The position numbers were made by a program, and so were the translations under genes. Below the pieces are notes generated by a model. It made no database searches, was not told the origin of the DNA, and saw only the letters and a program-made list of their open reading frames with translations. Positions 3,121-59,221 of a stretch of DNA of 64,000 bases are shown one piece after another (the first letter of the stretch is position 1; each line of letters starts with the position of its first letter). This DNA is from Tridacna crocea (taxonomy: Eukaryota > Mollusca > Bivalvia > Cardiida > Cardiidae), in the NCBI GenBank assembly GCA_943736015.1, contig OX031072.1, positions 6,289,501-6,353,500 of the forward strand, given 5' to 3'.

Positions 3121-4282
3121 TTAACCCATTATCAAACTACAAAATGTTTGACTTATACAAATTGAAAGCTTTTGCAGACTACAAATTCATTATGACTAAA
3201 TAGTTAAAATTTGTTCCTGGTAGGATGTTGGAAGTTTGTTTGATTCTTTCAAGCTGGATATTTTTTAACAGTTTTAAATGTCTGAAACTGTGATATAATT
3301 ATCTTGTAGAATAATGTTTGAGCTATCTGTTGGTAGACTACTATAGATGTTGAAATTGATTGTAAAAAGGCTTGTAAACAGCACAGTGTCCATGACTAGG
3401 GTATTGAAAATGTGTTGCGCATTATTTACCTCACTGTTGCTTGCCGTTCAGCTGTGAGCTTCGTGACAATAAAATGTTCAAATTAAATTTGCAGACAACT
3501 AATCAAAGATTGCTCAAATTATAGAAATTGCTAATAAGAGTAAAAAACATTCTGGAAAAAGGAGAAAATGTATGTTATCAGCATTTTATCTTATTCTCAC
3601 AATTTTTTCAAAAGCCTTTTTTTGTTAGAGTCAATAAAAACAGGGATTACACTGTAAGGGTTTAAAGCAAAATTCATAGAAAAAAAATCTACATACATTC
3701 TTTCTTTATTTGGCCATTCCAGTTACACAACAATCTGTACAAAGTCATTTTTCAACAAGATTTAACCTGTCACCACATGACAAAATTTTAGATTTGTTCA
3801 AACTGAAAGCGTTTCCTCACAATATCAATTAACCAGTTACCACACAGCAAAATTTTAGACCTCTCCAAATTAAAAGCATTTGCAGACAATGATTTCAAAG
3901 TGACTCAAATGGGGCAATTTTGCTTTGATTGGGTAGAAAACTTTGTGGGAAAAGGAGAAAATGCTGGTTACCAGCATTTTCCCCTTTTCCCACAAAGTTT
4001 TCTTAAGGCTTCTCTCTCAGGGTCATCAAAAGTAGGGACTTTATGGTTACGGGTTAAATATGAAATTCAATTTATTAAATACAGTTTGTCTTTTAACCCA
4101 TTACCCACTATCCCTACTTTTGATGCCCCCGAGAAAGAAGCCTTTAGAAGCATTTTCTCCTTTTCCCACAATGTTTTCTACCCTTCACAAAACAAATTTC
4201 AAATTTTCAGTCACTTTTATTTTGTTTGCAAATGCTTTCGATTTGTACAAGGGTAAAATATTATCGTTTGGTAATGAGTTAA
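3121..4282. repeat. Cluster of A-type palindrome MITEs
   Basis: Pieces: 3121-3235 (left half), 3539-3664 (right half), 3762-3828 (left end), 3829-4057 (complete) and 4093-4282 (reverse, only one palindrome arm left). The complete type runs TTAACCCTTTACC, a left segment (AAAATTTTAGACTGGTCC, AAAGCATTTGCAGACGAC), a GAAAACATTGTGGG palindrome arm, its complement, a right segment (TCAGGGTCGTCAAAAGTAGG) and GGTAAAGGGTTAA. TTAA target and CCC/GGG tips are piggyBac-like. Confidence 0.85.
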
Positions 4283-4350
4283 AGAATTTAGAGAAACACA
4301 ATGGAAAAAAGAGAAAACTTTATGAAAAATAGAGAGAAGGCAGAATAAAA

Positions 4351-4434
4351 CATCTTCGCAAACCAAGGATACTAGCTCCACTTTGTTCGTTACGTACCTT
4401 AGTACTACCCTAGTATCCTTGGCTTGCGAAGATG
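4351..4434. mobile_element. Minimal Mutator-like MITE (84 bp)
   Basis: Little more than two facing ends: CATCTTCGCAAACCAAGG at the left and its complement ending GCGAAGATG at the right. Flanks AGAATAAAA and AGGGTAAAA agree at seven of nine bases, fitting a 9-bp duplication. Confidence 0.65.
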
Positions 4435-4774
4435 AGGGTAAAAGTAGTTTGTCCCATTCTCAAATTGTTTTTCAGCAGCTGTCTTTCTTGTTAACTCTTT
4501 ACCAAACAACAAAATAAATATAAGAACATGCAGTCTGATCTTTGATCTGCACCTTCAGTTATTGCGTTATCAAATAATTTCATATTTTATCCATCCTTGA
4601 AACAGAGGATTTTGAAAAATAAAAAGGAAAAAAGGAAAAATGAGATATGGTAGTATGAGATTTTCCTCCAGCAATATTTTCTATGCTTTTTTATGCAATT
4701 GATCTCTAGATCTATTTCTCCCTTTTACTACAATGGTTCAAAAGGTTTAGAAAAGCAAAATTGTGTAAACTTTG

Positions 4775-4984
4775 TTAACTCTTTACCACACAACAGTAAT
4801 GTAATGTCCAAATTAATGAAAATTGCAGATGACAAATTTAATTTTGCTGAAATGAAGGGGTAGGATACATTCTAGGAAAAGGATAAAATGCTAGTCAGTA
4901 GCATTTTCTCCTTTTCCCTTATGGTTTTTCAAAAATCATTATTTTGAGTATCGTTAAAACTTTGGATTGTGTGGTTAAAGTTAA
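4775..4984 (+). repeat. A-type palindrome MITE, diverged
   Basis: Both TTAA ends are present; the palindrome arms have drifted (CTAGGAAAAGGATAAAATGC against GCATTTTCTCCTTTTCC). Confidence 0.75.
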
Positions 4985-5077
4985 ACAGTTATTTCATATA
5001 TTTCATAGGAAAAAATAACTAAAGCAATCTATCAATTGCCACTTATTATTATACAATAATTGTAAGAACTAAAACAG

Positions 5078-5541
5078 CAGAGCACCAGATAAGAGGGAGT
5101 GAACTGATGATATTGCCCGCCCGGGTGGCTCAGTGGTGAACGTGTCGGACTCATAACCTGGAGGTTGTGAGTTCGATACCCGGTTGTGGCCAACTATCTT
5201 TCCGGCGTTTTTTCGCCTCTCACTTCTGCTGAAGCAGGTGAGAAAAGTAGTCAGTGGCTTTGGAAAGAAAGTAGTGTTAGTACTGGTATGAGAAAGCCAG
5301 GAAACTAATTTGCGTCACCGACCGCCATGATATGACCTTAGCTGTTAAAGTGGCGTTAAACCCCAACACAACAACAACAGAACTGATGATATTCTAATGT
5401 CCTTATTTCTCTATGAATCTTTGTTGTGGGTACCATATTCATTAGAATTGTCTGGATGAGTATCCACAACAGAGTTTAGTAGAGAATAACAAAGATTTTC
5501 AATTTCAAAATCAAAACCATCTCTCTCTATCTGTAGCTCTG
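5078..5541. mobile_element. CAGAGCTCCAG-type MITE split by a SINE
   Basis: Inverted ends CAGAGCACCAGATAAGAGGG and its complement close an otherwise about 190-bp foldback MITE seen four more times in the window. A SINE at 5115-5379 sits inside it. Confidence 0.75.
5115..5379 (+). repeat. tRNA-derived SINE with intact target duplication
   Basis: A box TGGCTCAGTGG, B box GAGTTCGATACCC, unrelated body, and a tail ending GGCGTTAAACCCCAACACAA followed by an (AAC)n run. It is flanked by an exact 14-bp duplication GAACTGATGATATT at 5101-5114 and 5380-5393, the mark of LINE-driven insertion. Confidence 0.9.
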
Positions 5542-5584
5542 AAACATTAATGTATACTGAGCATTATGAGCATTAGGCATTAAT

Positions 5585-5615
<31 letters not shown>
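5585..5615. repeat. (CT)n microsatellite
   Basis: CT dinucleotide run in a wider CT-rich tract reaching about 5690. Confidence 0.9.
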
Positions 5616-5694
5616 CCCTTTGTGTTTTTCTTCCCACACACTTTCTATATTTCCTTCACACTCTCTCTTTGTTTCTCCTTTTCCTCCTTTTTCA

Positions 5695-5922: not shown

Positions 5923-5983
5923 ATCAAAATTAATAATTAAAAGTATTGTAGGTACATTGTATCAAGACAAATCTATAGCATCT

Positions 5984-7490: not shown

Positions 7491-8442
7491 TATACGCCCG
7501 AAGGGTCGTATTATGTTATACCCCCGTCCATCCGTCCGTCCGTTAGCAATTTCTTGTGTGTGCAACTCCTCCTACAGTTTTCATCGGAATTATTTGAAAC
7601 TTGCCACAATGAATCTCCATGATGTGTAGTTGTGCACCTGGGTCTTAGAATTTTGATTGCTGTTTGCGTTCCAAAGTTATCTGCCCTTGATTTCTGAAAT
7701 AACCAACTTTTCACTTTGAATTGTTGTTAAGGCCATAACTTCCATACCATAAAAGGTATCAAATTGAAACTACATACACTGATAGAACACATTATGGAGA
7801 AGTGCAGTGCACATAAACCATAACTCTATGACCTTTATTTTTTGAGTTATTGCCCTTTGTTAATTTTCAGTTTGAATTTTGTCCAGGCCATAACTTCCAA
7901 TCTATAAAAGCTAATAACTTGCAACTTCATACACTGATAGAACCCATTATAGAGAAGTGCAGTGCACATGAACCATAACTCTGTGACCTTTATTTTTTAG
8001 TTATTGCCCTTTGTTAATTTTCAGTTTGAATATTTGTCCAGGCCATAACTCCCATACTTTAAAACCTATCATCTTAAAACTACAAAGACTAATAGAACAC
8101 ATTATGAAGAAGTGCACTGCACAAGAACCATAACTCTGCCATCCTTCTTTTTTAGTTATTGCCCTTTGTTTGTTTTCTCTTTGAATTTTCGTCTGGGCCA
8201 TAATTTCTAAAATATAAAAATTATGATCTTGAACTTTTCAAGACTGATAGAACATCTTGTGGAGAACAGCAATTCACAAAATTTATAACTGTGCCACCCT
8301 TCTTTTTTTAGCTATTGCCCTTTAATATTTTTCACATATCATGGAGATTAACTACTCTTCATTCATGGCCCTTCTGTCATTTCAAATCATTTAACTGACA
8401 AGCCCCTTTGGGCGTATATGCGCCGCTTTGCAAAGCTCTTGT
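7491..8442 (+). mobile_element. Tandem-repeat element, ATACGCC...CTCTTGT type
   Basis: Begins TTTTTATACGCCCG and ends GCAAAGCTCTTGT. Inside are four to five diverged units of about 150 bp (GGCCATAACTTCC...GTGCAGTGCACA...TTATTGCCCTTTG). No protein frame runs through it. Confidence 0.75.
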
Positions 8443-8586: not shown

Positions 8587-9717
8587 CAACCCTGTACCAA
8601 GCAATGCTAACTTTTAACGATCCTGGTAACAAGCATTTCCTCCTTAACGATGTTTTCTACCCTATCAAAGAAAAATTGCACCATTGTAGCCACAATGAAA
8701 ATGTCATCTGCAAATACTTTGAGTTTGGACAAGGCTAAAATTTTTGTTGTCTGGTAAAAGGTTAAATTGTGAGATTTGTCAATAAAACTTTTTGGAAAAG
8801 GAGAAAATGCTGTATATGGTACATACTGGCATTTATGGTTGTCTGTTACAGGGTTAAATTGTGGGATTTGTCCTTAAAAAGAGTAGAAATTAATGTGGGA
8901 AAAGGAGAAAATGCTGGTTACCAGCATTTTCTCCTTTTCCTACAATTTTTTCAGAAGGCTTTTTTCTCAGGGTCATTAAAAGCAGGGATTGTGTTGTAAA
9001 GAGTTCAGCTCTATACAGCTTGTTCAGGGTTAGAGAGAGACTTTTTTAACCCATTACCACACGAAAAAATTTTAGACTGGTCCAAATTGAAAGCATTTGC
9101 AGAAGACAAAATACAGGTGACTGAAAAATTAAAATTTGGTTTGAGAAGGGTAGAAAACATTGTGGGAAAAGGAGAAAATGCTGGTTACCAGCATTTTCTC
9201 CTTTTCCCACAATGTTTTCTAAAGGCTTCTTGCTCAGGGGCTTCAAAAGTACGGATTGTATCAGATAGACAAACTTGGCTATGCCTCAAAAAGCAGTAAT
9301 CATTCAGTTTTGCTGCAGTCTGTCTAAATGCTATAATTGTGTGGTTATTGCCAATTGTACAAATTTGGCAACAATATTTGCTTGCATTTCAATAAGAATG
9401 TCATAAAGACAACAGACAGTTTGGCATATAACAGAGACATACCGAAAATAAGTTGAAATATTGAGAGGGATATTTTTCAGAATTGCCTTTAACCCATTAC
9501 CACTCAACCCCTACTTTTGACAATCCTGAGGAAGAAGCCTTTAGAAAACATTGTGGGAAAAGGATAAAATGCCGGTAACCAGCATTTTCTCGTTTCCCAC
9601 AATTTTTTCTACCCTTCACAAAAGCAAATTTCAACTTTTCTGTCACTTTTATTTTGTTGTCGGCAAATGTTTTTGATTAGGATAAACCTAAAATTTTGTC
9701 GTTCGGTAACAAGTTAA
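8587..9717. repeat. Cluster of A-type palindrome MITEs
   Basis: 8587-8765 (reverse, arm lost), 8762-8857 (core only), 8854-9006, 9046-9261 and 9489-9717 (reverse). The first three are joined through shared TTAA sites. Confidence 0.8.
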
Positions 9718-11625: not shown

Positions 11626-11635
11626 CCCTCCCTGT

Positions 11636-14219: not shown

Positions 14220-14411
14220 CAGAGCTCCAGATAAGAGGGAGTGATGGCATTCTAAATCCATTGTTTCTCTTCCAAACCCTATGTTGTGGGTATTCATTAG
14301 AATTGTCTCGATGAGACAATTCTAATGAGTACCAACAACATAGAGTTTAGTAGAGAATTATCAATATTTTCAATTTTGAAATGAAAATCACTCCCTCTAT
14401 CTGGAGCTCTG
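14220..14411. mobile_element. CAGAGCTCCAG-type MITE
   Basis: 192 bp, inverted over its length, with a perfect centre around AGAATTGTCTC/GAGACAATTCT. Ends CAGAGCTCCAG and CTGGAGCTCTG. Confidence 0.85.
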
Positions 14412-16017: not shown

Positions 16018-16019
16018 TA

Positions 16020-16594: not shown

Positions 16595-16680
16595 TATCAC
16601 CTCAGTATTTTCCATGACATATATTACACTCCGCCTCTTTCTTTGAATGTAAAAATATAGACCCAAAACTTTTCACAGTG

Positions 16681-17436
16681 TTAACTATTTACCACACAAC
16701 AAAATTTTAGACTGGTTCAAATTGAAAGCAATTGCAGTCGACAAAATAAAGGTAAAATTGAAATTTGTTCTGGGAAGGGTAGAAAACACTGTGGGAAAAG
16801 GAGAAAATGCTGGTTACCAGCATTTTCTCCTTTTCCTACAGTGTTTTCAAAACGCTTCTTTCTCAAAAGTAGGGATTGTGTGGTAATGGGTTAACCCTTA
16901 GACTGCTGAGCACAAATTGAACAGAACATGCGCTGTGTTAACTCTTTACCAGAACAGGATTCGTCTCTTTACAATTCATTCATACAAACATTTGTAGTAT
17001 TTTTCTCCTAGATTTTCTTATCTTATTACCAAACGACAATGTTTTAGGCTTGTCCAAATAGAAAGCATTTGCTGATGACAAATCAAAAGTGACTGAAAAT
17101 TTGAAAAATTTGTTTTGTGAAGGGTAGAAAACATTGTGGGAAGAGGAGAAAATGCTGGTTACCAGCATTTTCTCCTTTTCCCATAAGGTTTTCCAAAGGC
17201 TTCTTTTTCAGGGGTGTCATAAGTAGGGATTGTGTGGTAATGGGTTAATTTGTCAGTAACAGAACTCCCCAATGGCTTAACCCTGGTATCCAGCATTTTC
17301 TCCTTTTCCCACAAAGTTTTCTACCCTACAAAAGAAAAAATTGCAACATTTGAGCCTCTATGAAATTGATGTCCACAAAATTTTAATGCTTTGAAATTGG
17401 ATAGGTCTAAAATATTGCGGTGTGGTAAAGGGTTAA
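16681..17436. repeat. A-type MITEs and a D-type fragment
   Basis: 16681-16894 (forward), D-type end at 16891-16940, 17021-17248 (forward) and 17277-17436 (reverse, one arm only). Confidence 0.8.
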
Positions 17437-18140: not shown

Positions 18141-18370
18141 TTAACCCTTTACCCCATAGGGCAATTCTATGGTATCTCTAATTGACCCTAAATAACAGCA
18201 AGGATGAAGCCGATTTTTTATGGGTATATGACACCTTTTGATAGCATAGAAAACATTGTGACAAAAGGTGAAATTGCTCGTGACGAGCAATTTCACCTTT
18301 TGTCACAATGTTTTCCAAAGGCTCCTACAAGCAATGCGTAGAAATTGGTATCTATGGAGTAAAGAGTTAA
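18141..18370 (+). repeat. B-type palindrome MITE
   Basis: TTAA at both ends. Palindrome arm GTGACAAAAGGTGAAATTGC, with the matching GTCAC change in the other arm; other B copies read GTGGC and GCCAC. Confidence 0.9.
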
Positions 18371-20819: not shown

Positions 20820-21210
20820 TTAACCCTTTACCCCATAAGGCATTTCTATGGTATCTCTAATTGACCCTAAATAACAGCAAGGATGAAGCTGTTTCTTATG
20901 CGTATATGACACCTTTTGATAGCACAGAAAACATTGTGGCAAAAGGTGAAATTGCTCGTCACGAGCAATTTCACCTTTTGCCACAATGTTTTCCAAAGAC
21001 TCCTACAAGCAATGCGTAGAAATGAGTATCCATGGAGTAAAGGGTTAAGTCATTGTAAAAACCCAAATAATGCTATTTCAATTTTCTTTTGAATTTCTCC
21101 TTAATGGATAGTGTCAATCAAAGATCAGACTGCAGGTTCTGTGCAGTCTGATCTTGATCTAAATTGTTTGCAAGAGGTCAGTTAGTTGCGCTTGGCAGCC
21201 TTGGGGTTAA
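20820..21210. repeat. B-type and D-type TTAA MITEs sharing one TTAA
   Basis: B-type 20820-21048 with a clean palindrome (GTGGCAAAAGGTGAAATTGC arm). D-type 21045-21210 with core GATCAGACTGCAGG...TGCAGTCTGATC, ending GGCAGCCTTGGGGTTAA. Confidence 0.85.
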
Positions 21211-22555: not shown

Positions 22556-25500
22556 CTGAAAAACAGAATAAAAATAATATAATGTGATTTAACCATATAT
22601 AAACAATCCCCTGTTTTAGCTACCTTGAGGAAGAGGGTGCTTGAAAACATTGTGGAAAAAGGAGAAAAATGCTGGTAACCAGCATTTTCGCCCACTTGGA
22701 CAATGTTTTCTGTCCTTTTAAAGATGAATTCTACCAGATGAATTGCATTGAATTTGTTATCTGCATTATCTTTAATCCATTACCACACAATCCCTACTTT
22801 TGACGCCCCTGAGAAAGAAGCCTTTTAAAAACACTGTAGGAAAAGGAGAAAATGCTGGTAACCAGCATTTTCTCCTTTTCCCACAGTGTTTTCTACCCTT
22901 ACCATAAAAAATTTCTTTTTTTGAGTCACCTTTATTTTGTCATCTCCAAATACTTTGAATTTGGACCAGTCTAAAATTTGTCGTGTGGTAATGAGTTAAT
23001 GTCTATTTCATGTAACAGTGACACAGGTCAACATTATTTACATGAATTAGAATTCTACTTTTACTGCTCTTGTTTGTCATCGAAACAATAATTGCTTTTG
23101 AAAACATTGATGCAAAAGGCGAAACTACCAGTATAATGGCTACTGTTTCCATCACACAGTCTTACATGTCTTAACTCTTTACTCCATAGATACTCATTTC
23201 TACGCACTGCTTGTAGGAGCCTTTGGAAAACATTGTGGCAAGAGGTGAAATTGCTCGTGACAAGCAATTTCACCTTTTGCCACAATGTTTCTACACTATC
23301 AAAAGGTGTCATATACACATAAGAAATGGCTTCATCTGTGCTGTTATTTAGGGTCAATTAGAGATACCACAGAAATGCCTTGTGGGGTAAAGGGTTAACT
23401 TTTTACTAAAGACAAAATTTTAGACATAACCAAATTTCAGAACAACAAATGATGGGATTTGTCTCTAGAAGCATGAAAAAGATTCAGGGTACCAGGGCCG
23501 GTATTTACCAACTATTCTTGAGAATATTCTTAGTCTTCTTCTCTAAGTTTTTCAATATTTGTAAGTAACACAACCTCTGATTGGCTTAACCGAATGGTTT
23601 AGCCAATCAGAAGTTGTGTTACTTACAATGTAGAAAATTCTGGAGAATAAGATAAAGAACGCTCTTAAGAATAGTGGGTGAATAGGGGCACTGTTTGTCT
23701 AACAATAGAGATAGAAATTAGAGGTAAGGCTGCAGGTTGTATGGAATATGAAAGTACCAGTTCGTCTAACAATAGAGATAGAAATTAGAGCTAAGGCTGC
23801 AGGTTGTGTGGAATATGACGATTATAAACACTATCCGCTGAAACATTTCAAGGGTATTGAACTCTAAAATTAAAACCTGAATAGTTGTTTAGATGATATT
23901 ATTATCCCATCCAGAGTTGACATTTTGTCTTTTATAGGAGACTGATTGAGAAAAACAAATAAACCATGATGAAAAACAGTGAAGTGAACTACAGAAATTG
24001 ATAAATAATAAATTCATCCTTTAGAAAATTCATCCTTTAGAAAAATTGCTGATTACAAATTACATAGCCGATACAGACCGGTGTAGGTCAAGATTGGACA
24101 ACACAGAACATGACTGTACATGTAGTTTGATCTTGAATCTATGTTATGTTATATACATGTATTGTGTCATTTCTGCATTGGAATAACATTTTGATCTGAC
24201 CTCACTGAACATGTATGGTAGTTTGATCTTAAAGGTGGGTATTTAGAATTTTCACATCACACCAAATTAAAAGTTATATATATCATTGAAATTTATATGA
24301 AAAAACAATACAAATTATCAATAATTAAGAATCATAAGATTACAAAAAAAATTTTTTTTGATGGTATTCCCTTAAAAGGCTACAAAGCCTCTTAAACTAT
24401 TTTTAGATTTCGTGCCAAAAATCAATAAAGCATTGTGGGAATGTCACGTGACTGGCATGTGATTAATAATGCTTAAATTTCATTACATAACAATCATGTA
24501 ATAATTATTTTCCATAATCTCTTCTTTGGATGGATGTTTGAAACTTCGTCTGTGTTTTCCTGTATTTAAATGAAAGAATCGATAATCTAAGAATAGAACG
24601 TGTCTTCCGTTGGTTTCAGCCGGGTCCATAATAAGTCTCTAATTTCTTGTGTTATCGGATAGTTTTCGACTACGGGGGTTTTATGAACGCAAATTAAAAG
24701 GCTTTTGGAGTATAAGGATGATTTTTTGCATTTTTATACGCCAGTCGAAGACGGGACGTATTATGGGACCACCCGTGGCGGGCGGGCGTCCGGGCGGGCG
24801 GGCGGCGTCCAGTTCTTTGTCCGGAGCATATCTCCAAAACTATTCTACCTAGGGTTATGAAATTTCATGGGTGGATAGATCTCATCAAGGGGGAGTGCAG
24901 TGCACAAGAACCATAACTCTTGCTTGCTCAATTTTTGAGTTATTGCCCTTTGTCGCTTTTCATACTTGAATTTTGTCCGGAGCATATCTCCAAAACTATA
25001 CTAGCTAGGGTTATGAAATTTCTTGGGTGAATAGATCTCACCAAGGGGGAGTGCAGTGCACAGGAACCATAACTCTTGCTTGCTTAATTTTTGAGTTATT
25101 GCCCTTTGTCGTTTTTCATACTTGAATTTTGTCCGGAGCATATCTCCAAAACTATACTAGCTAGGGTTATGAAATTTCTTGGGTGAATAGATCTTACCAA
25201 GGGGGAGTGCAGTGCATAGGAACCATAACTCTTGCTTGCTTAATTTTTGAGTTATTGACCTTTGTCCTTTTTTCATACTTGAATTTTGTCCGGTGAATAT
25301 CTCCAAAACTATACTAGCTAGGGTTATGAAATTTCATGGGTAAATAGATCTTATCAAGGGGGAGTGCAGTGCTCAGAAATCATAACTCTTGCTTGCTTAA
25401 TTTTTGAGTTATTGCCCTTTGTCATTTTTCATACTTGATTTTTGTCCGGAGCATATCTCCAAAACTATACTACCTAGGGTTATGAAATTTCATGGGTGGA

Positions 25501-52500: not shown

Positions 52501-55500
52501 CACTGGGCACGTTAAGGAACCAAGGAGATATATTTGAAGAAGAGCTCGGGCTTGTACCCTAATTTCCTTGTATCCGATTCTTTTTCTCTAATGGTCCATA
52601 CCATATATGCCCCGAGCACGGAGGGACCTTAATCCTACAAAGTCATCATATCATCATTTCGCATCTGGAGATCACCTAGTGTAGGTACAATAAATTCTTT
52701 AGTGAACTACAGTATGCAACCCAGGAGAAGGAGCGAAAGGAGGGTCAAAGCCTCGGGTCGCTAATGGAGCGAAAACAGGTCGCATAAGGTCGCAACACCT
52801 AGCGAGGCTACGATAGTGGCTATGTACTGTTCAATCGCTATCTGATCTCAATGGCCGTTACTTGATCGCCGTTGGAGCGTCATCTGGTTGTTATCTGAGC
52901 GGGAGTGTCCTCATAATCACCAATCCGGCAGCGATCTGAGGCGATCTACGGCGCTCTGTATGAGCGCACAGAGCGCCGTAGATCGCGGCCTAGTGGAATG
53001 GGGGTATTAGACTGGTCCAAACTGAAAGAATTTGCAGATGACAAAATAAAGGTGATTGAAAAATTGAAATTTGTTCTGGGAAGGGTAGAAAACACTGTGG
53101 GAAAAGGAGAAAATGCTGGTTACCAGCATTTTCTCCTTTTCCCGCAGTGTTTTCAAAAGGCTGCTTTCTAAGGGGTGTCAAAAGTAGGGATTGTGTGGTA
53201 AAGAGTTCAGATGTTACTGGAAAGTGAGTCACAATATTTCTTTGATTTTTTTTTTTCAAGTATGTAAATTTTGGCTTCAAATTTGCTCTCTTGTTCAAAT
53301 CAAGGTCACTTCTTGTAAAGTGCTTTTATTTGTATTGATCTTTCGACCCTTTATCTTTTTGCACAATTTCTGAGACTTGTACAGAATGAAAGTAATCTGT
53401 TTTATCAGATCAGAGCTCCAGATAGAGGGAGTGATTTTGATTTCATAGTTAAAAGTATTAATTATTTTCCACTAAACTCTAAGTTATGGGTACTCATTAG
53501 AATTGTCTCATCAAGATGACTCTAATGAGTACCCATAACATATAGTTTGGAAGAGAAATGACAAATTTTGAATGTCATGAATCCCTCTTATATGCATGGA
53601 GCTCTGTCAGATGATATATCGAACTTGATGTCGGCTCTCCGAACTAAGATGTCGGTTCTCAAAGTCTGGAAAGAAAGTATCAGATGATGACGAATTAGAT
53701 ATTGCTCAAATGGTTATACTCATTACCAAACAACTAAATTTTAGGTTTTATTAAATCAAAAGCATTTGCAGACGACAAAATAAAAGTGACTGAAAATTTG
53801 AAATTTCTTTTGGATAGGGTAGAAAAGATTGTGGGAAAAGGAGAATATGCTGGTTACTAGCATTTTCTCCTTTTCCTAAGGAGTTTTCTAAAGGCCTCTT
53901 TCTCGGGGACTGACAAAAGTAGGGACTGTGTGGTAATGGGTTAATTTGTTGTTGGAAAAAGAGAAATGGCTGGTAACCAGCATTATCTCCTTTTTCCATA
54001 ATGTTCTCCCCTATCAAAGACAGAAATCATGATTTGAGCTATAATGGATTGTTGTTGTCTGCAAAGGTTTTCAATTTGGTCATGTCAAAAATTTAGTCAT
54101 TCGGTAGAGTTAATAAAATGTCCATGACTTAGATATCCAGATGCAATTTAACTCTTTACCAGACAATTCCTTAAGGTTTAAATGACCCTGAGGAAGAAGC
54201 CTTTTGAAAACATTGTGGGAAAAGGAGAAAATGCTGGGAACCAGCATTTTCTCCATTTCCCACATTGTTTTCTAACCTATAAAAGAACCATTGAGCCATT
54301 GCTAGTGCTTTCCGGCAGAGGTTTCGAATGAGATCAGTGCACAGGCTGTAGTTTGTTAAGATGTTTATTGTAAGAATTGCTAGAAAATTTCTATCATCAT
54401 GGCTTTATTTAGCTGACTTCTAATGCCAGACTGGTAAAAGAGTGGAGCCAGTATTTGACAACCAACAAAGTTACATGTGATGAAAAGTAGTTCCAAATGG
54501 TGATTTCATAACCTGTTTCTGTGAAAAGTAGTTCCAATAATGGCAGTTGTACATGAAGCTAAAAGTGCCTTGTTGACTTTTTACCACACTTTTGCAACTT
54601 TGAACAACATAAGAAGACAGCTTTTGTAAACATCGTAGGAACACTGGAGAAACTGCTGGTAAACAGTATTTTCTCTCTTCCCACAATTGTTTCAAAAAGC
54701 CTCAGCCTTTGGGTCCTTAACATGTAGAATTGCATAAACCATTACTGTTAAAGCCATTTTAATTTATTTTTATGTTTTCATTTATGTTTTTTTTATGTTT
54801 TCAGTTTTCTGTCACAATAATCTTTTAAAGTCACTGGGTGCTTTCTCACCTAACAGCATTACAAGAATGTTAATTAGTTGCAGAGCAGTGAATCCTGTCC
54901 AAATGCCACGATCAATAATCCCAAAAAACCAAGTGGACAAGCTTGGAATCAAACCCATGACCCCTAGATCAAGAGTTTACATTGTAAATACTGCAGCTGA
55001 AACGGTGTTTTCTACCCTTCGCAAAACAAATTTCAAATTTTCAGTCACTTTTGTTTTGTCGCCTAGAAATGCTTTCGATTTAGATAAACCTAAAATTTTG
55101 TCATTTGGTAATGAGTTTAACACTTTACCACACAATGACGACTTTTAACACCTCTGAGGAAGAAGCCTTTTGAAAACATTGTGGGAAAAGGAGAAAATGC
55201 TGGTAACCAGCATTTTCTCCTTTTCCCACAAAGTTTTCTACCCTGTCAAATTAAAAGTGCACCATTTGTGCCACTATAAAATTATTGTCTATAAATGCTT
55301 TCAATTTGAATAGACCTAAACTTTTGCTGTGTGGTAATAGGTTAACTGAAGTCTTAATCGTCATGGTCTTCCAATTACTGGCAGAGAAGGCACAAAGATT
55401 GGAGCCAGGAAGGCCGGGATAGAGAAGGAGAAAGTGGGAGAAGACATCACTGCATCATGCAACAGTTTCCAACAAAACCCAATAAACCAAGCCCTTGTCC

Positions 55501-57101
55501 TATTCCCTGGCTGAATGTACTGGTACTTGATTCTCTAGGGGTTAAAGAAAGTGGGGAAATATGACAAAATAATGTAAAAAAACAACAACATACAGTGTTG
55601 TGGCAAACCGGATCTGTCTATATGCAAATTTGGTGCAGGAATATGGCAGCACCTAACTCTTCACCGAACAGGCCCAAGTTTTAACAAACTTCAGTAAAAA
55701 GCTCTTCGAAAATATCGTGGGAAATTTAGAAAACACTCATAACCAGCATTTTCTCCTTTTCCCACAATGTTTTCAACCCTCTGAAAGACTAATACCATTA
55801 TTTAAGCCTTAGTTAAATTTGCATCTGGAGATGCTTTTAATTTGGACGAGATTTTGTCATGTGGTAAAGAGTATAAATGTGAAAAATGACAGTTGTCCCT
55901 GATTCCCTGGGTGAATTGAAGAAGAGATAGGTGTAAATGAGCAACTACTGTAGTTTGATCCTTTACCAAACAGTCCCTGGTTTTAATGACCCGCAGAAAG
56001 AAGCCTTCTGAAAACATTGTGGGAAAAGTGAAAAAATGCTGGTAACCAGCATTTTCTTCTTTTCCAATAATGTTTTCTACTCTGCTAAAGTCAAGATTCA
56101 ATTTTTGAGTCATGGTTATTTTGTTATATGCAAATGTTTTCAGTTTGGACAAGTCTGAATTATTATCGTTTGATAAAGAGTTAAGACTTAAATTACCCTT
56201 TATCAAAATGACAAGTTTTAGACTTCTCTAAATTGAAAGCATCTACAGACTGACAATTCTAGAGTGATAAGATGAATTGGAGTTCCTTAACCCATTACCA
56301 AACAATCCAGACTTTTCACGACCCTGAGAAAGAAGCCTTTTGAAAACATTGTAGGAAAAGGAGAAAATGCTGGTAACCAGCATTTTCTCCTTTTCCCACA
56401 ATGTTTTCTACCCTGCTGGAAACAAATTTCAATTTTTGAATTACGTTTATTTTGTCGTCTGCAAAGGCTTTCAATTTGGACCAGTCTAAAATTTTGTCAT
56501 TTGGTAGAGTTAACTCAATATCAAACAACAAAACTTTCGACTCGTCCAAATAGAAAGCATTTGCAGATAACAAAATAACAGTGACTAAAAATTCGAGATT
56601 TGTTTTATGCAGGGTAGAAAACATTGTTGGAAAAGGAGAAAATGCTGGTTTCCAGCATTTTCTCCTTTTCCCCAATGGGTTCTATAGGCTTCTTTCTCTG
56701 GATCGTCAAAAGTAGGGATTGTGTTGTAATGGGTTTACAGGGTATAGAGCATATTTTATGAAAGCAGAAAATGCTGTTTTTCTAGGGATTGTTTACCCTT
56801 TACCAAACAATCCCTGGTTTTTACAACCCAGAGATAGAAGACTTTTGAAAACTTTGTGGGAAAAGGAGAAAATTAAGGTTAAAATGAGTAACAAAATAAC
56901 TTACTTCAGAAATGTAATAATTCCAACTTTAGCTATGTTATTCTGTATTAATGTCCAGCTCTCCTTTAAGAGATTTTCCTGTTCTACGGACACAACAGGT
57001 TCAGGTGCCTGTGGATCAAAGCTCACTCTATGTCTAATACTATTAATATTTCCATTGACATGTTCATTTAAAGCTTTTTCTTTTGTGTGTTTATGTCCCA
57101 T
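22421..57101 (-). CDS. Globin gene, three exons, 185 aa
   Basis: Seen: exons 57101-56905, 32380-32155 and 22555-22421 join in frame (197+226+135 bases) to 185 codons plus stop, with donors GTAAGT at both introns and acceptors TTTTCAG and TTTTTCAG. The product has an N-terminal extension of about 38 residues, then helix A (LLKESWTLIQ), CD1 Phe78, distal E7 His98 in LRAHALRVMG, proximal F8 His130 in LGIRHKNY, and G-H helices (LMGPQFIQSI, AWCKLFELM). Known: introns at B12.2 and G7.0 are the ancestral pair in animal globins. The 32-residue E7-F8 spacing matches neuroglobin rather than haemoglobin beta, but the neuroglobin E11.0 intron is absent. Inferred: a heme-binding, O2-reactive intracellular globin; the extended N-terminus recalls globin X, though His at position 3 argues against myristoylation. 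Start chosen for its ACCATGG context. A possible ATTAAA poly(A) signal lies on the minus strand at 22305-22300. Subtype is not certain; globin identity is. Confidence 0.93.
22589..22999 (-). repeat. Two A-type MITEs in globin intron 2
   Basis: 22589-22775 and 22772-22999, sharing a TTAA, the first lying 33 bp from the exon 3 acceptor. The second shows ACACTGTAGG against CCCACAGTGT in its arms. Confidence 0.85.
23171..23475. repeat. B-type MITE plus A-type left fragment
   Basis: 23171-23398 is a reverse B-type copy; 23395-23475 is an A-type left end sharing its TTAA. Confidence 0.85.
23494..23691. mobile_element. GGGCC-GTATTTACC foldback MITE
   Basis: About 198 bp and inverted throughout: GGGCCGGTATTTACCAACTA at the left, AGTGGGTGAATAGGGGC at the right, centre CTGATTGGCTTAACCGAATGGTTTAGCCAATCAG split near 23585. 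Related pieces are at 17440, 45785 and 59250. Confidence 0.8.
23697..23820 (+). repeat. 67-bp direct tandem duplication
   Basis: GTCTAACAATAGAGATAGAA begins at 23697 and again at 23764, with very few differences across the unit. Confidence 0.85.
23830..24730. other. Intronic stretch without recognised gene
   Basis: A worn D-type fragment (GTAGGTCAAGATTGGACA) lies near 24080; otherwise nothing supported. Confidence 0.4.
24735..26137 (+). mobile_element. Tandem-repeat element, ATACGCC...CTCTTGT type
   Basis: Starts TTTTTATACGCCAGTCGAAG, then a GC-rich CGGGCGGGCGGGCGGC stretch, then eight units of about 155-160 bp (CATATCTCCAAAACTATAC...GGGGGAGTGCAGTGCACA), and ends GGGCGTATCTTGCGACAG, TTTGCCGCTCTTGT. 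The units are far more alike than those of the 7491 copy, so this array is younger. Confidence 0.8.
26180..26366. mobile_element. CAGAGCTCCAG-type MITE
   Basis: Ends CAGAGCAGCTCCAGATAG and CTTATCTGGAGCTCTG, with the ACTCATTAGAATTTTCTC centre. Confidence 0.8.
26505..26732 (+). repeat. C-type palindrome MITE
   Basis: Arm GTGGGAAAAGAAGAAATTGC facing its exact complement round CTCGTAATGAG; TTAA at both ends. Confidence 0.9.
26949..27161 (+). repeat. A-type palindrome MITE, one arm shortened
   Basis: TTAA ends intact; the inner part of the first arm and the loop are deleted. Confidence 0.75.
27437..27950. repeat. Three A-type MITEs joined at TTAA
   Basis: 27437-27634 (reverse, arm lost), 27631-27844 (forward) and 27841-27950 (left segment only). 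Confidence 0.8.
28073..28299 (+). repeat. B-type palindrome MITE, TTAA ends worn
   Basis: Arms match the B pattern, but the arm ends differ (ACACTGTGGC against GCCACAATGT), an unsymmetrical copy. Confidence 0.8.
28300..29542. repeat. Run of six A-type MITEs
   Basis: 28300-28418, 28415-28639, 28636-28979 (with about 120 bp of foreign sequence in the left segment), 28976-29116 (one arm deleted), 29113-29341 and worn 29400-29542. The first five are linked by shared TTAA sites. Confidence 0.85.
29551..29873 (+). repeat. tRNA-derived SINE
   Basis: A box TAGCGCTGTTGGTAGCG, B box GGGTTCGATCCC, a body of about 230 bp and an (AATC)n tail. A reverse piece of the same body is at 32745-32895. Confidence 0.85.
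29915..30380. repeat. Worn A-type and D-type MITE pieces
   Basis: 29915-30050 keeps a palindrome remnant; 30315-30380 is a D-type core (GTGTAGATACAAGATCACAT). Between them no feature is seen. Confidence 0.55.
30450..30906. repeat. Two A-type MITEs, opposite orientation, shared TTAA
   Basis: 30450-30681 (forward) and 30678-30906 (reverse). The second has ACACTGTAGG against CCCACAGTGT. Confidence 0.85.
31034..31540 (+). mobile_element. Tandem-repeat element, TAGCTCACC type, 3' truncated
   Basis: Opens with a terminal hairpin: GCTCACCTGAGCAC facing GTGCTCATGGTGAGC. Then GGGCCAATCTTGATGAAACT and two units with GCCCCAGGGGTC/GCCCCTGGGGTC. It breaks off in the right half of an A-type MITE. Confidence 0.7.
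31540..31611 (+). repeat. A-type MITE right half
   Basis: Only the outer part of the second arm and the right segment up to GGGAAAGGGTTAA. Confidence 0.75.
31846..32091 (-). repeat. A-type palindrome MITE beside globin exon 2
   Basis: Complete, reverse; lies 57 bp past the exon 2 donor within intron 2. Confidence 0.85.
32155..32380 (-). CDS. Globin exon 2 (helices B-G, heme pocket)
   Basis: One base completes codon 66, followed by 75 codons from LFETHPEVQDVF to KIEYVD. It holds CD1 Phe (residue 78), E7 His (98), E11 Val (102) and the F8 proximal His (130), so the whole heme pocket sits here. The acceptor is TTCTCTTTTCAG just above 32380; the donor GTAAGT is at 32154-32149. A palindrome MITE begins 57 bp past the donor. 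Confidence 0.93.
32745..32895 (-). repeat. SINE body fragment, reverse
   Basis: Matches the body of the 29551 SINE on the other strand (CCATTGTCGAAATAATGGTC); tRNA head absent. Confidence 0.65.
32973..33360. repeat. Chimeric A-type MITE and tRNA-like piece
   Basis: 32973-33275 has a left segment, a broken core, then a second half in reverse order, as if two copies had fused. 33275-33355 holds a worn tRNA-like sequence (GATTTGATCCCCAGC). Confidence 0.6.
33361..34172. other. Intronic stretch without recognised gene
   Basis: AT-rich; a piece near 33905-33955 ends TTTTGCTGTTTGGTAAAG like an A-type tip. Nothing else. Confidence 0.4.
34173..34606. repeat. C-type and A-type MITEs sharing TTAA
   Basis: 34173-34400 is a C-type copy; 34397-34606 is A-type reverse with a hybrid palindrome (AAAGTGCTCGTAACAAGC). 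Confidence 0.85.
34616..36301 (-). mobile_element. Tandem-repeat element with terminal hairpin, about ten units
   Basis: Reverse orientation: ACAAGAGGGCCATGATGGCC at the left, about ten units of about 145 bp (GACCTAGTGACCTAGTTTTT), then the hairpin GCTCACCATGAGCAC/GTGCTCAGGTGAGC and CTAATAAAA. Open frames of 66-119 codons on the minus strand are periodic repeats of the unit, not genes. Confidence 0.8.
36349..37960. repeat. Scattered A-type pieces
   Basis: 36349-36423 (right half), about 36870-37040 (worn), 37062-37200 (reverse), 37585-37820 (reverse, near complete) and 37820-37960 (core). A D-type core is at about 37322-37370. Between 36424 and 36868 nothing is seen. Confidence 0.65.
38442..38890. 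repeat. Two A-type MITEs
   Basis: 38442-38670 forward (CCCTTTCCC variant) and 38727-38890 reverse, right end lost. Confidence 0.8.
39000..39490 (+). repeat. Two A-type MITEs
   Basis: 39000-39214 and 39296-39490, both forward; the second lost its left tip. Confidence 0.8.
39590..39775 (-). repeat. tRNA-derived SINE, reverse
   Basis: On the minus strand: GTCGTGAGGTAGAGC, then GAGTTCGATACC as B box. Tail not clear. Confidence 0.6.
39826..40930. repeat. A-type MITE split by a tandem-repeat element
   Basis: 39826-39893 is an A-type fragment and 39893-39960 a D-type end. The A-type copy 39957-40930 is interrupted in its second palindrome arm by the element at 40092-40868. Confidence 0.75.
40092..40868 (+). 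mobile_element. Tandem-repeat element inserted in a palindrome
   Basis: Starts ATATGCCTGACGAAGACGGG, has three to four units of about 150 bp (ATAACTTTGTCATCTCTAGT), and ends CGTATCTTGCGACAATTTGC, CGCTCTTGT. Host sequence TTTTGTCATTTTT on one side and TTCACAATG on the other shows insertion into a T run with no obvious longer duplication. Confidence 0.8.
40991..41425. repeat. B-type MITE inserted in an A-type MITE
   Basis: The B-type copy 41143-41375 sits between CAAATTCCATCAT and CCAAACTTAGC of a worn reverse A-type copy, with TTAA on both sides. Confidence 0.8.
41426..41920. other. Intronic stretch without recognised gene
   Basis: No repeat or frame supported. Confidence 0.4.
41921..42133. 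repeat. D-type TTAA MITE, complete
   Basis: 213 bp with TTAACCC/GGGTTAA tips. Core AGATCAGACTGCACATTATG facing TGTGCAGTCTGATCTTGATC. Best copy of this family here. Confidence 0.85.
42290..42899. repeat. Two A-type MITEs, one strongly diverged
   Basis: 42290-42500 has a different palindrome (AAAGAGCAAAATGCTGGTCA / CATCAGCATTTGATCCCTTT); 42663-42899 is an ordinary forward copy. Confidence 0.7.
43130..43320 (+). repeat. SINE body fragment
   Basis: Resembles the 3' part of the 5115 SINE (GAGAAAGCCAGGAAA, GCTGCTAAAAGTGTGTTAAA); head missing. Confidence 0.55.
43284..43754. repeat. 125-bp direct repeats, TTAA-bounded, flanking a MITE
   Basis: 43284-43408 and 43630-43754 are the same 125 bp (one difference seen), each bounded by TTAA. 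Between them is a complete forward A-type MITE (43409-43629) whose outer TTAAs are the inner TTAAs of the repeats. Confidence 0.9.
43755..44550. other. Intronic stretch without recognised gene
   Basis: Two facing open frames near 43890-44180 on opposite strands; neither has recognisable content. Confidence 0.35.
44551..45095. repeat. Foldback element, ATTTATTTCAT type, second copy
   Basis: Arms AAAGATCGAAATTTATTTCA and its complement round GTGGTGCAGCCACGAG, then the same tail as at 20180-20440. Confidence 0.75.
45112..45395 (+). repeat. A-type MITE carrying an extra palindrome
   Basis: TTAA ends intact. Within the left segment lies a separate perfect palindrome at 45230-45263, GCAGGGATCTTATATA facing its complement with a 2-bp gap, absent from other copies. 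Confidence 0.85.
46080..47280. other. Unplaced interior with TTACCCCACCCA motif
   Basis: TTACCCCACCCA or close forms occur at about 46090, 46258 and 46428. No reading frame of note. Confidence 0.4.
47281..48245 (-). mobile_element. Tandem-repeat element with terminal hairpin, reverse
   Basis: ACAAGAAGGACATTGGCCCT at the left; four to five units of about 150 bp (GGTAGAGGTCCACTAGGA); then hairpin GCTCACCTTTAGCAC/GTGCTAAGGTGAGC before TAAAA. Same type as 31034. Confidence 0.75.
48262..48325. repeat. CA-rich simple repeat
   Basis: Imperfect ACACCC/ACACAT repeats directly beside the preceding element. Confidence 0.8.
48433..49728 (+). mobile_element. Tandem-repeat element, TAGCTCCACTGG type, duplicated 3' end
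   Basis: Starts TTTTAGCTCCACTGGTCGAA, has diverged units with GCCCCACCCCAAGGGTC-like segments, and ends GGGCCATCATGACCATCTTGT at 49529. A second copy of the last about 110 bp ends GGCCATTATGACCCTCTTGT at 49728. Confidence 0.7.
50646..50780 (-). repeat. C-type palindrome MITE, one side only
   Basis: Palindrome with AAATTGCTTTTTACGAGC centre and a CAGGGCTTGTTTGAGAAAGG right side; left segment missing. Confidence 0.75.
50944..51156 (-). CDS. Unassigned 70-codon frame in globin intron 1
   Basis: Contains LDSLVQDVCNRSKHTRVYIL and GDAVYMPGKKNTWNRFMIDS, and ends at TAA-type stop after KRKALIFL. It reads like protein, is on the globin strand, and has a stop just upstream of its first ATG. I do not recognise it; it may be a processed fragment, a stray exon or chance. 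Confidence 0.2.
   Translation of the reverse strand: MPMIKEKGALDSLVQDVCNRSKHTRVYILSPKGEKDKFGDAVYMPGKKNTWNRFMIDSSPEIKRKALIFL
51395..51788 (-). repeat. A-type MITE interrupted by a tRNA-like piece
   Basis: 51395-51610 (reverse) and 51717-51788 (its right end). Between them lies a worn SINE head (AATCTCAGTTGGTAGCATGC). Confidence 0.7.
51838..53006. mobile_element. Harbinger-like non-autonomous element, 1169 bp
   Basis: Inverted ends TACCCCCATTCCACTAGGCC / GGCCTAGTGGAATGGGGGTA continue inward through GCGATC-ACGGCGCTCTG. A 3-bp duplication TTA flanks it (51835-51837, 53007-53009), as PIF/Harbinger elements make. The interior repeats GCGATATGA-GCGCTC at about 35-bp intervals. No transposase; a SINE is inside. 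Confidence 0.75.
52341..52665 (+). repeat. tRNA-derived SINE inside the Harbinger-like element
   Basis: Head GACCGGTAGTGCAGATGG with B box GAAGTTCGATACCTGG; ends in a CATCATATCATCATTT tail. Confidence 0.7.
53411..53606. mobile_element. CAGAGCTCCAG-type MITE
   Basis: 196 bp, flanked by TCAGAT on both sides (53405-53410, 53607-53612), a likely target duplication. Confidence 0.8.
53716..54300. repeat. Three A-type MITEs
   Basis: 53716-53944 forward, 53941-54113 reverse (shared TTAA, first half lost), 54148-54300 reverse without right end. Confidence 0.8.
54587..55345. repeat. A-type MITEs around a worn SINE
   Basis: 54587-54752 (worn, right segments on both sides), about 54870-55000 worn reverse SINE head (GGGTTTGATTCC on the minus strand), 55005-55120 (half) and 55117-55345 (reverse, shared TTAA). 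Confidence 0.7.
55346..55650. other. Intronic stretch without recognised gene
   Basis: Nothing supported. Confidence 0.4.
55651..56876. repeat. Run of A-type MITEs up to globin exon 1
   Basis: 55651-55874, 55956-56184, fragment 56190-56280, 56287-56513 and 56510-56737 (shared TTAA, opposite orientation), and 56791-56876, which stops after the first arm 22 bp short of the exon 1 donor. Confidence 0.8.
56905..57101 (-). CDS. Globin exon 1 (N-terminal extension, helices A-B)
   Basis: Encodes residues 1-65 plus two bases of codon 66 (Asn). It starts MGHKHTKE in a strong ACCATGG context and carries a polar extension before the helix-A core SWTLIQNNIAKVG. The donor GTAAGT occupies 56904-56899. 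A truncated palindrome MITE ends only about 22 bp beyond the donor. An upstream ATG at 57142 opens a 24-codon frame that overlaps this start out of frame, if the transcript reaches that far. Confidence 0.9.
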
Positions 57102-57297
57102 GGTAAAATTTTGCTGCCACGGTATAAATGTATATGAGCCATGATTTGTGACAAGGGGGCTTTATGCACAGATCTTGGTAATACATTACTGCATATACCA
57201 AGCAAGCTTCGCAGTATTATAGATCCATAAAATCTGATAGATGTAACATAACTTACTGAATCATTGGATGCAAACTAGTGCATATAACAGACCTCCA

Positions 57298-57479
57298 GAT
57301 AAGAGGGAGTGATGGTACTCTAAATTCATTATTTCTTTTCCAAACCCTATGTTGTGGGTACTCATTAGAATCGTCTCAATGAGACGATTCTAATGAGTAC
57401 CGACATCATAGGGTTTAGTAGATAATAAGTAATAATTTCAATTGTGAAATCAAACTCACTGCCTCTATCTGGAGCTCTG
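57298..57479. mobile_element. CAGAGCTCCAG-type MITE upstream of the globin start
   Basis: 182 bp, centre AGAATCGTCTCAATGAGACGATTCT, about 200 bp upstream of the globin ATG. CATATAA and CATTTAA flank it. Confidence 0.8.
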
Positions 57480-57756
57480 CATTTAATATGCAAAAATTAA
57501 CTGAAAGCAAAAAGTTTTGGCCTAGGTCAGCCTCCGTGAACTGTGCAGCCTGAGCAAGGTGGATACTTTTTGCAGATGCACTAAGCCCCCTTTTTACACA
57601 TGTATTATAATATACTGGAATAATTATTTTTAAAATTATACATGTATTCCGTGACTTATTACTATGTGATCACAAAGATAGTATCATTGGACCCTATATA
57701 AATGGATCGAACCAATACTTCTTTCTGGTGGAAACAGTGTTCAATACTTTTTTGAT

Positions 57757-58581
57757 CTTACTCTTTACCAAACAATCCTGTTTTTTGATAACCATGAAGA
57801 GACTGGCTTTTAAAAACATTGTGAGAAAAGAAAAAAAAAACTGCTGGTTACAAGTATTTTCTACTTTTCCCACAATGCTTTCTGCCCTTTCACCAACAAA
57901 CTCAATCCAAGCTTTGATTCACAGTTAATTCAGGGATTAATATTTGCTGCCTCGGAATTTCTTGAAGTCATAAATCTTGTACTTAAGAGGTTTATTCTAG
58001 CAGTGTAAATATCAGTGATATATCCCAAGACAAGGACAGAAAACAGTAGATTTAGATTTTTTATGGTAAAGTAGCAGCTCTGTTTTTTGGGTTTTTTTTT
58101 TCCATGGTTAAAGACAATTTGTGATTTTGTCACTAAAATTCCAGTCATAGTCAGGAACAAATATTTTCAAAAAGATGTTTGTGAAGGAAAGGTGAACCCA
58201 AGCCCACGTTATAAATATTTAATTATTTGTATAGGACCACGAAAACAGGCTGTTTTGTCTAAAATCTTTAAGGTTAGTAATGGGAAAACTGTGCAAGAAT
58301 ATCAGACAAGTCACACCGTTGGTATTGTCCATTATAAAAGTGGATGACACACTAAATGTGACTTAATACTTTACCAAACAGTCTTAACTTTTAATGAATC
58401 TGGTGGAGAAGTCTTGAAAACATGGAGGGAAAAGGAGAAAATGCTGGTAACCAGCATTTTCTCCTTTTCCCTTCAATGTTTTCTCTTTAACAGACAGAAA
58501 TCCCCATTTGAGCCACCTATAATTTGTCGTCTGCAAATGCTTTCAATTTGAACCTAAGAATTTATGATTTGGTAGAGTTAA
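57757..58581 (-). repeat. Two A-type MITEs upstream of the globin gene
   Basis: 57757-57925 (worn) and 58373-58581 (good palindrome), both reverse. Between them no gene is recognised. Confidence 0.75.
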
Positions 58582-59010
58582 AATCTAAATGATGGGATTT
58601 GCCACTGAAAAGCTTTTGTCATAACTTTTTCTATAACTTCCTCCTTGTGGGATTGTGAAAGCATGGGATGGTTAGCTATAATGAGTTTTCAAATTTATAG
58701 GTCTGAAAATAAGCATTTTTTGAAATTCACCTTCAAAAAACATCAAGGTTACATTTCTTTAAGTCAATTATACACATTAAAAGCATTCAATGGTAATGAC
58801 TTTCTTTGTTTGCTTGGCTAGAAGTGAATTATTTGAAGTTATTATTGTATCGTGGATCCTGTTACCATAATCTATAATGCATGAGAAATTGTAGAAGCAG
58901 TCAATAAGTCAGTAATATTTACCTGGTAACTTCATATTTGAAGTTTGTACTCGGAATTGAGAATGCCTTTGAGGGAAAGAACATAAAGTTTGGAGATACA
59001 GCTTAAAATT

Positions 59011-59221
59011 CTAACTCTTAATAATGCAATCTGAATGTAAATGACCCTGAGAAGGAAAACTTTTGAAAACACTGATCAGCATTTTCCCCATTTAGAACCA
59101 TGTGTTCAATTCTTTCACAGAAAAAGATTTATCATGTGAGCAACATCTTATTTGTCATTTGCAAAAGTGTTCAGTTTGGACAAAATTAATGTTGAAATTT
59201 CCTCAACTGGTAAGGAGTTAA
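59011..59221 (-). repeat. A-type MITE with deleted palindrome
   Basis: Outer segments present, but the palindrome is reduced to GAAAACACTGATCAGCATTT. Confidence 0.65.

What the first reader, a model, noticed from the sequence alone, without database searches (positions are those of the whole stretch)
3121..59221. Palindrome arms change together across MITE subfamilies
A, B and C cores differ at several sites (GTGGGAAAAGGAGAAAATGC, GTGGCAAAAGGTGAAATTGC, GTGGGAAAAGAAGAAATTGC), and each change is matched in the opposite arm. Single copies also show paired changes: ACATTGTG/CACAATGT versus ACACTGTG/CACAGTGT (for example 22820, 26570, 30740, 53093), and GTGAC/GTCAC at 18250. This is what one expects if one arm templates repair of the other (hairpin-primed correction), or if the hairpin itself is selected for transposition. 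Random drift should break the palindrome instead.
Basis: partly seen in the sequence, partly recalled or inferred. Interest (0 to 1): 0.8.

Follow-up and report, generated by a model that had tools for sequence, protein, structure and literature searches.

The report
Transposon palindrome matched in source families
A very common small mobile DNA piece in an animal genome has a 67-base mirror-image core whose two arms changed together when new families arose, while in individual copies the two arms decay mostly independently, so the matching seems to come from selected source elements rather than from repair copy by copy.

Summary
The window holds 67 cores of a ~229-bp TTAA-flanked, piggyBac-type MITE with a 67-bp palindromic core (33-nt arms, 1-nt centre). 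The exact inner 31-mer occurs 191,599 times in 1.05 Gb.

The four family consensuses (A, A8C, B, C) are perfect palindromes, and every consensus arm difference (positions 8, 14, 21, 26, 31) is matched in the other arm, although A and B left flanks align no better than shuffled sequence. But 'each change is matched' fails for single copies: 243 one-sided against 15 paired changes in 65 window copies, 3 of them perfect.

Genome-wide, two tested sites gave 156 and 202 matched double mutants against 6,194 and 5,903 one-sided ones, 1.29x and 1.85x an unpaired control: arm-templated correction is a percent-level process. ACACTGTG travels with family-specific flanks in 15 of 17 copies.

Best reading: the palindrome is selected in mobilised sources, probably as a two-fold binding site, and copies decay afterwards. 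Hairpin-primed repair is not supported as a general process. Side signal: the centre base is complement-swapped about 8x too often. Coral CMITEs are the closest precedent.

The parts
9153..9219 (+). 67-bp palindromic core, perfect; A8C-type flanks but T at arm position 8
   Evidence: 0 arm mismatches; family assignment; folds as a 32-bp hairpin, z -15.3
20820..21048 (+). Family B element (ends approximate, from flank lengths): TTAA, left flank 107, core 20927-20993, right flank 55, TTAA
   Evidence: perfect B core
18142..18370 (+). Family B element (ends approximate) with core 18249-18315, GTGAC/GTCAC in both arms
26505..26732 (-). Family C element (ends approximate), core 26560-26626, paired change at arm position 20
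34173..34400 (-). Family C element (ends approximate), core 34228-34294
29113..29341 (+). A8C element (ends approximate), core 29220-29286, paired ACACTGTG plus one-sided right-arm 12A
16675..16903 (+). A8C element (ends approximate), core 16782-16848, paired ACACTGTG plus one-sided right-arm 12A
22772..23000 (-). A8C element (ends approximate), core 22827-22893, one-sided right-arm 12A
30678..30906 (-). A8C element (ends approximate), core 30733-30799; centre base complement-swapped while right-arm 12A stayed in place
53088..53154 (+). A8C core; terminal part of the left flank missing
56287..56515 (-). Family A element (ends approximate), core 56342-56408 with one one-sided change
3121..3215 (+).
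   Evidence: 80% identity to the A left flank, no core hit beside it

Best explanation
A very abundant, old group of TTAA-target, piggyBac-type MITEs carries an internal 67-bp palindrome that helps its mobilisation. Copies with a well-matched palindrome act as sources more often, so when the recognised sequence shifts, both half-sites shift together, and each large family is founded by a matched palindrome. The likeliest agent is a two-fold symmetric protein, such as a transposase dimer, reading the same half-site in each arm. After insertion a copy is free of this selection and its arms decay independently. Shown: element anatomy, paired family consensuses, mostly independent decay of copies, core conserved while flanks diverge, piggyBac transposases in the genome. 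Inferred: that mobilisation is what selects the palindrome, and that a dimer (rather than a DNA hairpin or an RNA) is what reads it.
For: Four families share the layout 107 + 67 + 55 bp (C: 106 + 67 + 55), TTAA included. A and B flanks match at 0.50 (left) and 0.61 (right), against 0.54 and 0.52 for shuffled sequence, while the cores match at 58 of 67 with every arm difference paired. Within families the core has about half the flank divergence after base-composition correction at columns with a clear consensus: B 28 observed against 61.6 expected; A8C 47 against 111.1; A 360 against 737.7; C 14 against 19.5. Complementary paired changes are enriched on internal branches (odds ratio 4.1); slid-position controls give 0-2 internal double changes against 9 observed. 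Decay: 243 one-sided against 15 paired changes in the window, and genome-wide counts. At least 118 PF13843 piggyBac transposase matches; 26 of the 30 best rows are without stops. PMC11707139 (passages): paired C-terminal domains of the piggyBac and piggyBat transposase dimers bind palindromic sites in the transposon ends.
Against: No transposase was matched to these terminal repeats, so mobilisation by piggyBac rests on TTAA plus the CCC terminus. The core is far longer than the 19-bp palindromes of piggyBac. Arms resemble the element's own ends in one of eight comparisons only (A right end P 0.012; the others 0.064 to 0.613). One-sided variants (A8C right-arm 12A, B left-arm 13A) did spread to several copies, so a perfect palindrome is not strictly required. 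18 of 108 left-flank hits and 7 of 105 right-flank hits have no core beside them; many are fragments, but I did not sort out which could have moved without a core. Singletons alone show the core below the flank in B, A8C and C but above it in A (0.0096 against 0.0036). Lower core divergence could partly reflect undetected flank subfamilies or, in A and A8C, the 30 loci chosen for an intact inner core.
Confidence: 0.55

Rival explanations
1. Arm-templated correction: at replication or repair one arm folds back and rewrites the other (template switching in a quasipalindrome), continually restoring the palindrome and producing matched changes.
For: A small excess of matched double changes over the unpaired control: 35 of 6,350 changed copies at one site (P 0.001) and 92 of 6,105 at the other (P 2e-15). 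The centre base is complement-swapped in 8 of 108 family-A copies and 13 of 166 over all families, against 0.97% for such changes elsewhere in the core; spacer inversion is a described footprint of template switching (PMC8794818 section 7; PMC8604942 abstract start in a listing). L018:508-743 looks like a fold-back derivative with the left flank on both sides. In the flank tree 42 terminal double changes exceed the slid controls (12-23).
Against: 97.5% and 96.7% of changed copies at the two tested sites are one-sided. 64 of 67 window cores are imperfect. Copies with a swapped centre have more, not fewer, arm mismatches (mean 5.81, n 16, against 3.91, n 147; they are also more diverged overall). 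In window 30733 the centre is swapped but the right-arm 12A stayed put.
Confidence: 0.12
2. Pure shared ancestry: a few source copies happened to carry these palindromes and no selection or repair is involved.
For: ACACTGTG in both arms goes with mostly A8C-type flanks in 15 of 17 sampled copies, with 1 tie and 1 exception (L013:5865). Genome-wide r2 between arms at position 8 is 0.63.
Against: Ancestry spreads a matched change but does not make one: all consensus arm differences among four families are matched although A and B flanks are at or near the shuffled level. On any tree of the four families position 8, or positions 26 and 31, must have changed together more than once or been recombined (inference).
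Confidence: 0.2
3. The palindrome works as a transcribed hairpin (small-RNA source or RNA fold), and base pairing itself is selected.
For: It folds as a 32-bp hairpin at -51.7 kcal/mol, z -15.3.
Against: No Rfam family reaches its gathering score in the window. Any such palindrome folds this way. Transcription was not examined; no transcript data are held here.
Confidence: 0.1

Closest known systems
CMITE families of Acropora corals (PMC2872659)
   Same: TTAA target duplication, CCCTTT-type terminal repeats, several families with different terminal repeats sharing one conserved internal region (75 bp there, 67 bp here), tied by its authors to piggyBac-like elements
   Different: CMITEs are about 100 bp and ~1,600 copies in A. 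millepora; these are 229 bp with 191,599 exact inner cores. 'palindrom' has 0 occurrences in that paper, and I saw no arm-matched changes in the parts read; its alignment figure is not held, so sequence homology was not tested.
piggyBac / piggyBat transposon ends (PMC11707139, passages)
   Same: Palindromic sites set asymmetrically from the two ends of piggyBac, read by a transposase dimer; TTAA chemistry
   Different: Their palindromes are short (19 bp in piggyBac) and lie in the ends; here one 67-bp palindrome sits inside, 107 bp from one end and 55 bp from the other.
Template-switch maintenance of RNA stems (PMC8794818)
   Same: Matched changes in two arms and inversion of the spacer
   Different: Here matched changes are a small minority in individual copies and the arms are not homogenised.
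Kolobok elements (PMC9587614, passages)
   Same: TTAA target duplication; present in molluscs
   Different: Termini of Kolobok are 5'-RR and YY-3'; here they are 5'-CC (CT at the A and A8C left ends) and GG-3'.

Membership tests
piggyBac-type MITE | TTAA at both ends as target duplication | tested here: met
   Column identity 0.86-0.95 for all eight TTAA letters over 145 copies; empty sites were not looked for
piggyBac-type MITE | Terminal CC(C/T)T-like inverted repeats | tested here: met
   CCCTTT or CCCATT at right ends of all four families and CCCTTT at left ends of B and C; A and A8C left consensus reads CTCTTT/CTCATT; 16-18 of 22 end letters match, TTAA included
piggyBac-type MITE | Transposase of the superfamily in the same genome | tested here: met
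   At least 118 PF13843 matches over the cut-off; 0 of 14 control genomes matched
piggyBac-type MITE | Terminal repeats shared with an autonomous element | not tested
Coral CMITE | Internal region more conserved between families than the rest | tested here: met
   Core 0.84-0.97 identical between families, flanks 0.50-0.77 except A/A8C, which are 0.93-0.94
Coral CMITE | Length about 100 bp | tested here: not met
   229 bp (228 for C)
Coral CMITE | Sequence of the internal region | not testable with these tools
   Given only in a figure that is not held
Kolobok MITE | 5'-RR ... YY-3' termini | tested here: not met
   Termini are 5'-CC or CT ... GG-3'

The most novel reading that the evidence does not exclude
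The 67-bp palindrome is a mobility module in its own right: an internal recognition site shared by MITE families with different ends, under selection for two-fold symmetry in source lineages. Its sequence therefore evolves by matched steps like an RNA stem, sometimes made in one go by short template switching at the hairpin tip, as the swapped centre base suggests.
Probability: 0.3. Interest if true: 0.7.

Novelty: new variant of a known kind. Interest (0 to 1): 0.48.

Why it matters
The coral CMITE paper left open why an internal region should be more conserved than the ends. Here the same pattern occurs with a clear two-fold symmetry, matched changes between families and at least 191,599 intact inner cores, which makes the question testable by alignment and by a transposition assay. 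The copy-level counts also give a large natural estimate of how rarely a long palindrome in an animal genome is rewritten from its own other arm.

Tried and rejected
Arm-templated correction as the main process: rejected on genome-wide counts at two sites. Arms as internal copies of the terminal repeats: suggestive for the A right end only (P 0.012), not for the other seven comparisons, so dropped. Known RNA family: none at the gathering score. tRNA origin: none (ARAGORN ran with the bacterial code). Search of print for the core letters: six 15-19-letter strings, one hit in an unrelated zebrafish paper (listing only). Searches for a described palindromic conserved-core MITE (listings) showed the coral paper as the only close match that I recognised; this covers the held open-access library only. 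A bivalve transposon survey (PMC10294476, passages) says MITEs take up a considerable part of bivalve genomes but gave no such element in the passages seen. The DNA search with the 67-mer found nothing; that tool says it skips very common words, so this shows nothing.

Limits: the sampled copies are 210 from window plus 50 loci (354,930 bases); 30 of the 50 loci (L021-L050, all from the start of contig C1) were fetched for an exact inner core, which biases families A and A8C but not B or C. The family assignment stopped after five rounds, with 1 letter of A and 3 of A8C still changing. The core scan is ungapped, so core deletions are under-counted and gap comparisons were not used. The flank tree (164 of 210 copies, 162 columns) is weakly resolved; 8 of the 27 matched terminal changes are at position 8 and may be misplacements. 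Arm position 31 of the genome-wide test is also a family-diagnostic position, so its excess may include minor subfamilies. Hypergeometric P values assume equal mutability of sites. The centre-base test was run with 167 copies where the table gives 166. Corrections that restore the original letter leave no trace, so the true correction rate may be about twice the visible excess.
Full report
What is there. The window lies in a 1.05-Gb genome of 31 contigs; the 18 contigs from which I took stretches are 40-77 Mb long. By recall the satellite-like repeats look molluscan; no call names the species. The repeated element is about 229 bp: TTAA, left flank (107 bp with its TTAA; 106 in C), a 67-bp core made of two 33-nt arms around one centre base, right flank (55 bp with its TTAA). 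The window has 67 cores with <=20 mismatches, 63 with <=14; twenty sampled 10-kb stretches hold 77 with <=14 in 200 kb, so the window is about 2.5 times denser than the sample. The exact inner 31-mer occurs at 191,599 places, with 0 for the backward control.

Families. Iterative assignment of 210 copies gave A 151, A8C 32, B 17 and C 10. Their core consensuses are perfect palindromes. Arm differences: A/A8C position 8; A/B 14, 21, 26, 31; A/C 8, 26, 31; each in both arms. A and B flanks are no more alike than shuffled sequence on the left (0.50 against 0.54) and a little more on the right (0.61 against 0.52), whereas the cores are 58 of 67 identical. Families also differ in terminal repeats. 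This resembles coral CMITEs, whose internal region is more conserved than their ends (PMC2872659: outline with abstract, Results part 1 of 2 and Discussion read). Not every flank has a core: 18 of 108 left-flank hits and 7 of 105 right-flank hits had none beside them, and 34 of 173 cores of 45 nt or more had no A-type flank hit nearby, among them B copies and degenerate ones.

Do single copies keep their arms matched? No. Relative to the family consensus, window copies (65 of 67) have 243 one-sided, 15 paired and 10 double-but-different positions, and 3 are perfect. Over 201 of 210 sampled copies: 688, 54 and 31, with 17 perfect. Outside the six diagnostic positions, both-arm changes in 185 copies were 43 against 20.6 expected from independence, while slid positions gave 11-24 against 12.0-16.1. 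A genome-wide count avoids sampling. Site a (arm position 28, G>A): left only 3,116, right only 3,078, both 156. Site b (arm position 31, G>A): 3,019, 2,884, both 202. Unpaired control, a in one arm and b in the other: 110 and 120. Against independence the ratios are 3.12 and 4.45 for paired and 2.35 and 2.47 for unpaired. I read the unpaired excess as copies differing in age. Scaled by the control, the paired excess is 35 copies (0.6% of changed copies, P 0.001) and 92 copies (1.5%, P 2e-15). Correction of one arm from the other is therefore a percent-level process at these two sites, about twice that if half of the corrections restore the original letter.

Is the ACATTGTG/ACACTGTG change ancestral? 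Genome-wide, over the 53-mer with T at the centre: TT 43,372; CC 10,799; left T/right C 2,259; left C/right T 1,883. Of 17 sampled CC copies, 15 have mostly A8C-type flanks (10 diagnostic flank sites), 1 is tied and 1 (L013:5865) has A-type flanks. So the variant is mainly inherited as a subfamily. One-sided copies at position 8 are 7.1% of the total, against 3.1% and 3.0% at sites a and b (my arithmetic), which is compatible with some one-sided sources or with recombination. One-sided states shared by several copies are also seen directly: right-arm 12A in 7 of 32 A8C copies, left-arm 13A in 7 of 17 B copies.

Where do paired changes happen? On a tree from flank columns only (164 copies), terminal branches carry 410 one-sided and 42 double changes (27 complementary); internal branches 26 and 9 (7 complementary). 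Slid-position controls give 12-23 terminal and 0-2 internal doubles. Complementary changes are enriched on internal branches (7 of 33 against 27 of 437, odds ratio 4.1, P 0.006). This fits selection on source lineages and mostly neutral decay of copies; the terminal doubles also exceed their controls, which leaves room for some arm-templated events or misplaced copies. The tree is weakly resolved, so this is supporting, not decisive, evidence.

Core against flank. At columns with a clear consensus and with base composition allowed for, the core has 28 changes against 61.6 expected in B, 47 against 111.1 in A8C, 360 against 737.7 in A, and 14 against 19.5 in C. In B, which is free of the fetching bias, this is a two-fold difference. 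Letters seen once only give the same direction in B, A8C and C (0.0187, 0.0140, 0.0240 in the core against 0.0337, 0.0258, 0.0464 in the flanks) but the opposite in A (0.0096 against 0.0036). I read this as flank variation among sources while the core is held constant; a lower mutation rate in the core is not excluded.

Centre base. In element orientation (smallest orientation margin 55.5) the centre is T 95, A 8, C 5 in A; T 30, A 1, C 1 in A8C; T 8, G 1 in C; C 13, G 4 in B (score >=100). Complement swaps total 13 of 166, against 0.97% at other core sites (P about 1e-8, computed with 167 copies and treating copies as independent, although B copies share ancestry). For 8 of the 9 A/A8C copies with a swapped centre, the three nearest copies by flank all have T, though these neighbours are 9-30% away; I take most of these events as recurrent. 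Arms of such copies are not better matched (5.81 against 3.91 mismatches), and the copies are more diverged overall. This looks like short-range spacer inversion at a hairpin tip, described as a template-switch footprint (PMC8794818: outline with abstract and section 7 read), without arm homogenisation.

Mechanism. The genome has at least 118 piggyBac transposase matches; of the 30 best rows 26 have no stop. In piggyBac and piggyBat, two C-terminal domains of the transposase dimer read a palindrome in the transposon end (PMC11707139, passages). A dimer that reads both arms would force both to change together when specificity shifts, as terminal repeats do. I think this is the likeliest reason for the matched families, but neither binding nor mobilisation was tested, and the core is longer than the piggyBac palindromes described there.

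Verdict. The matched arms are real between families and are not maintained in most individual copies. The finding is a new variant of a known kind: a CMITE-like conserved core, here palindromic and extremely abundant. Interest is moderate.

Noticed in passing
L018:508-743: A TTAA-bounded element with the MITE left flank on both sides and a short remnant of the core between them: apparently a fold-back derivative made at the palindrome.
   Followed up: partly
window 30733-30799 and 12 other sampled copies: The centre base of the palindrome is replaced by its complement about 8 times more often than such changes elsewhere in the core, without arm homogenisation.
   Followed up: partly
window 59600-63739: Intact 1379-aa ORF with reverse transcriptase, RNase H and integrase domains (Pfam); no direct repeats of 60 nt or more found in 57500-64000, so no LTR pair was seen inside the window.
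   Followed up: partly
window 14265-14357, 53465-53557, 57333-57425: A second hairpin repeat family with 44-46-nt arms, 80-89% complementary, unrelated by eye to the MITE core.
   Followed up: no
window 45817-45930 and 59261-59358: A third inverted-repeat family, arms of 47-52 nt with a shared CTTCTGATTG motif.
   Followed up: no
window 7708-8335, 24816-26077, 34688-36203, 40257-40633: Tandem arrays with units of about 145-160 bp.
   Followed up: no
L009 and L011: Several MITE cores repeat in near-identical flanking sequence: six core hits in L009 and five in L011, with the listed rows about 3.27 kb and 1.85 kb apart; this suggests large tandem arrays that contain the MITE.
   Followed up: no
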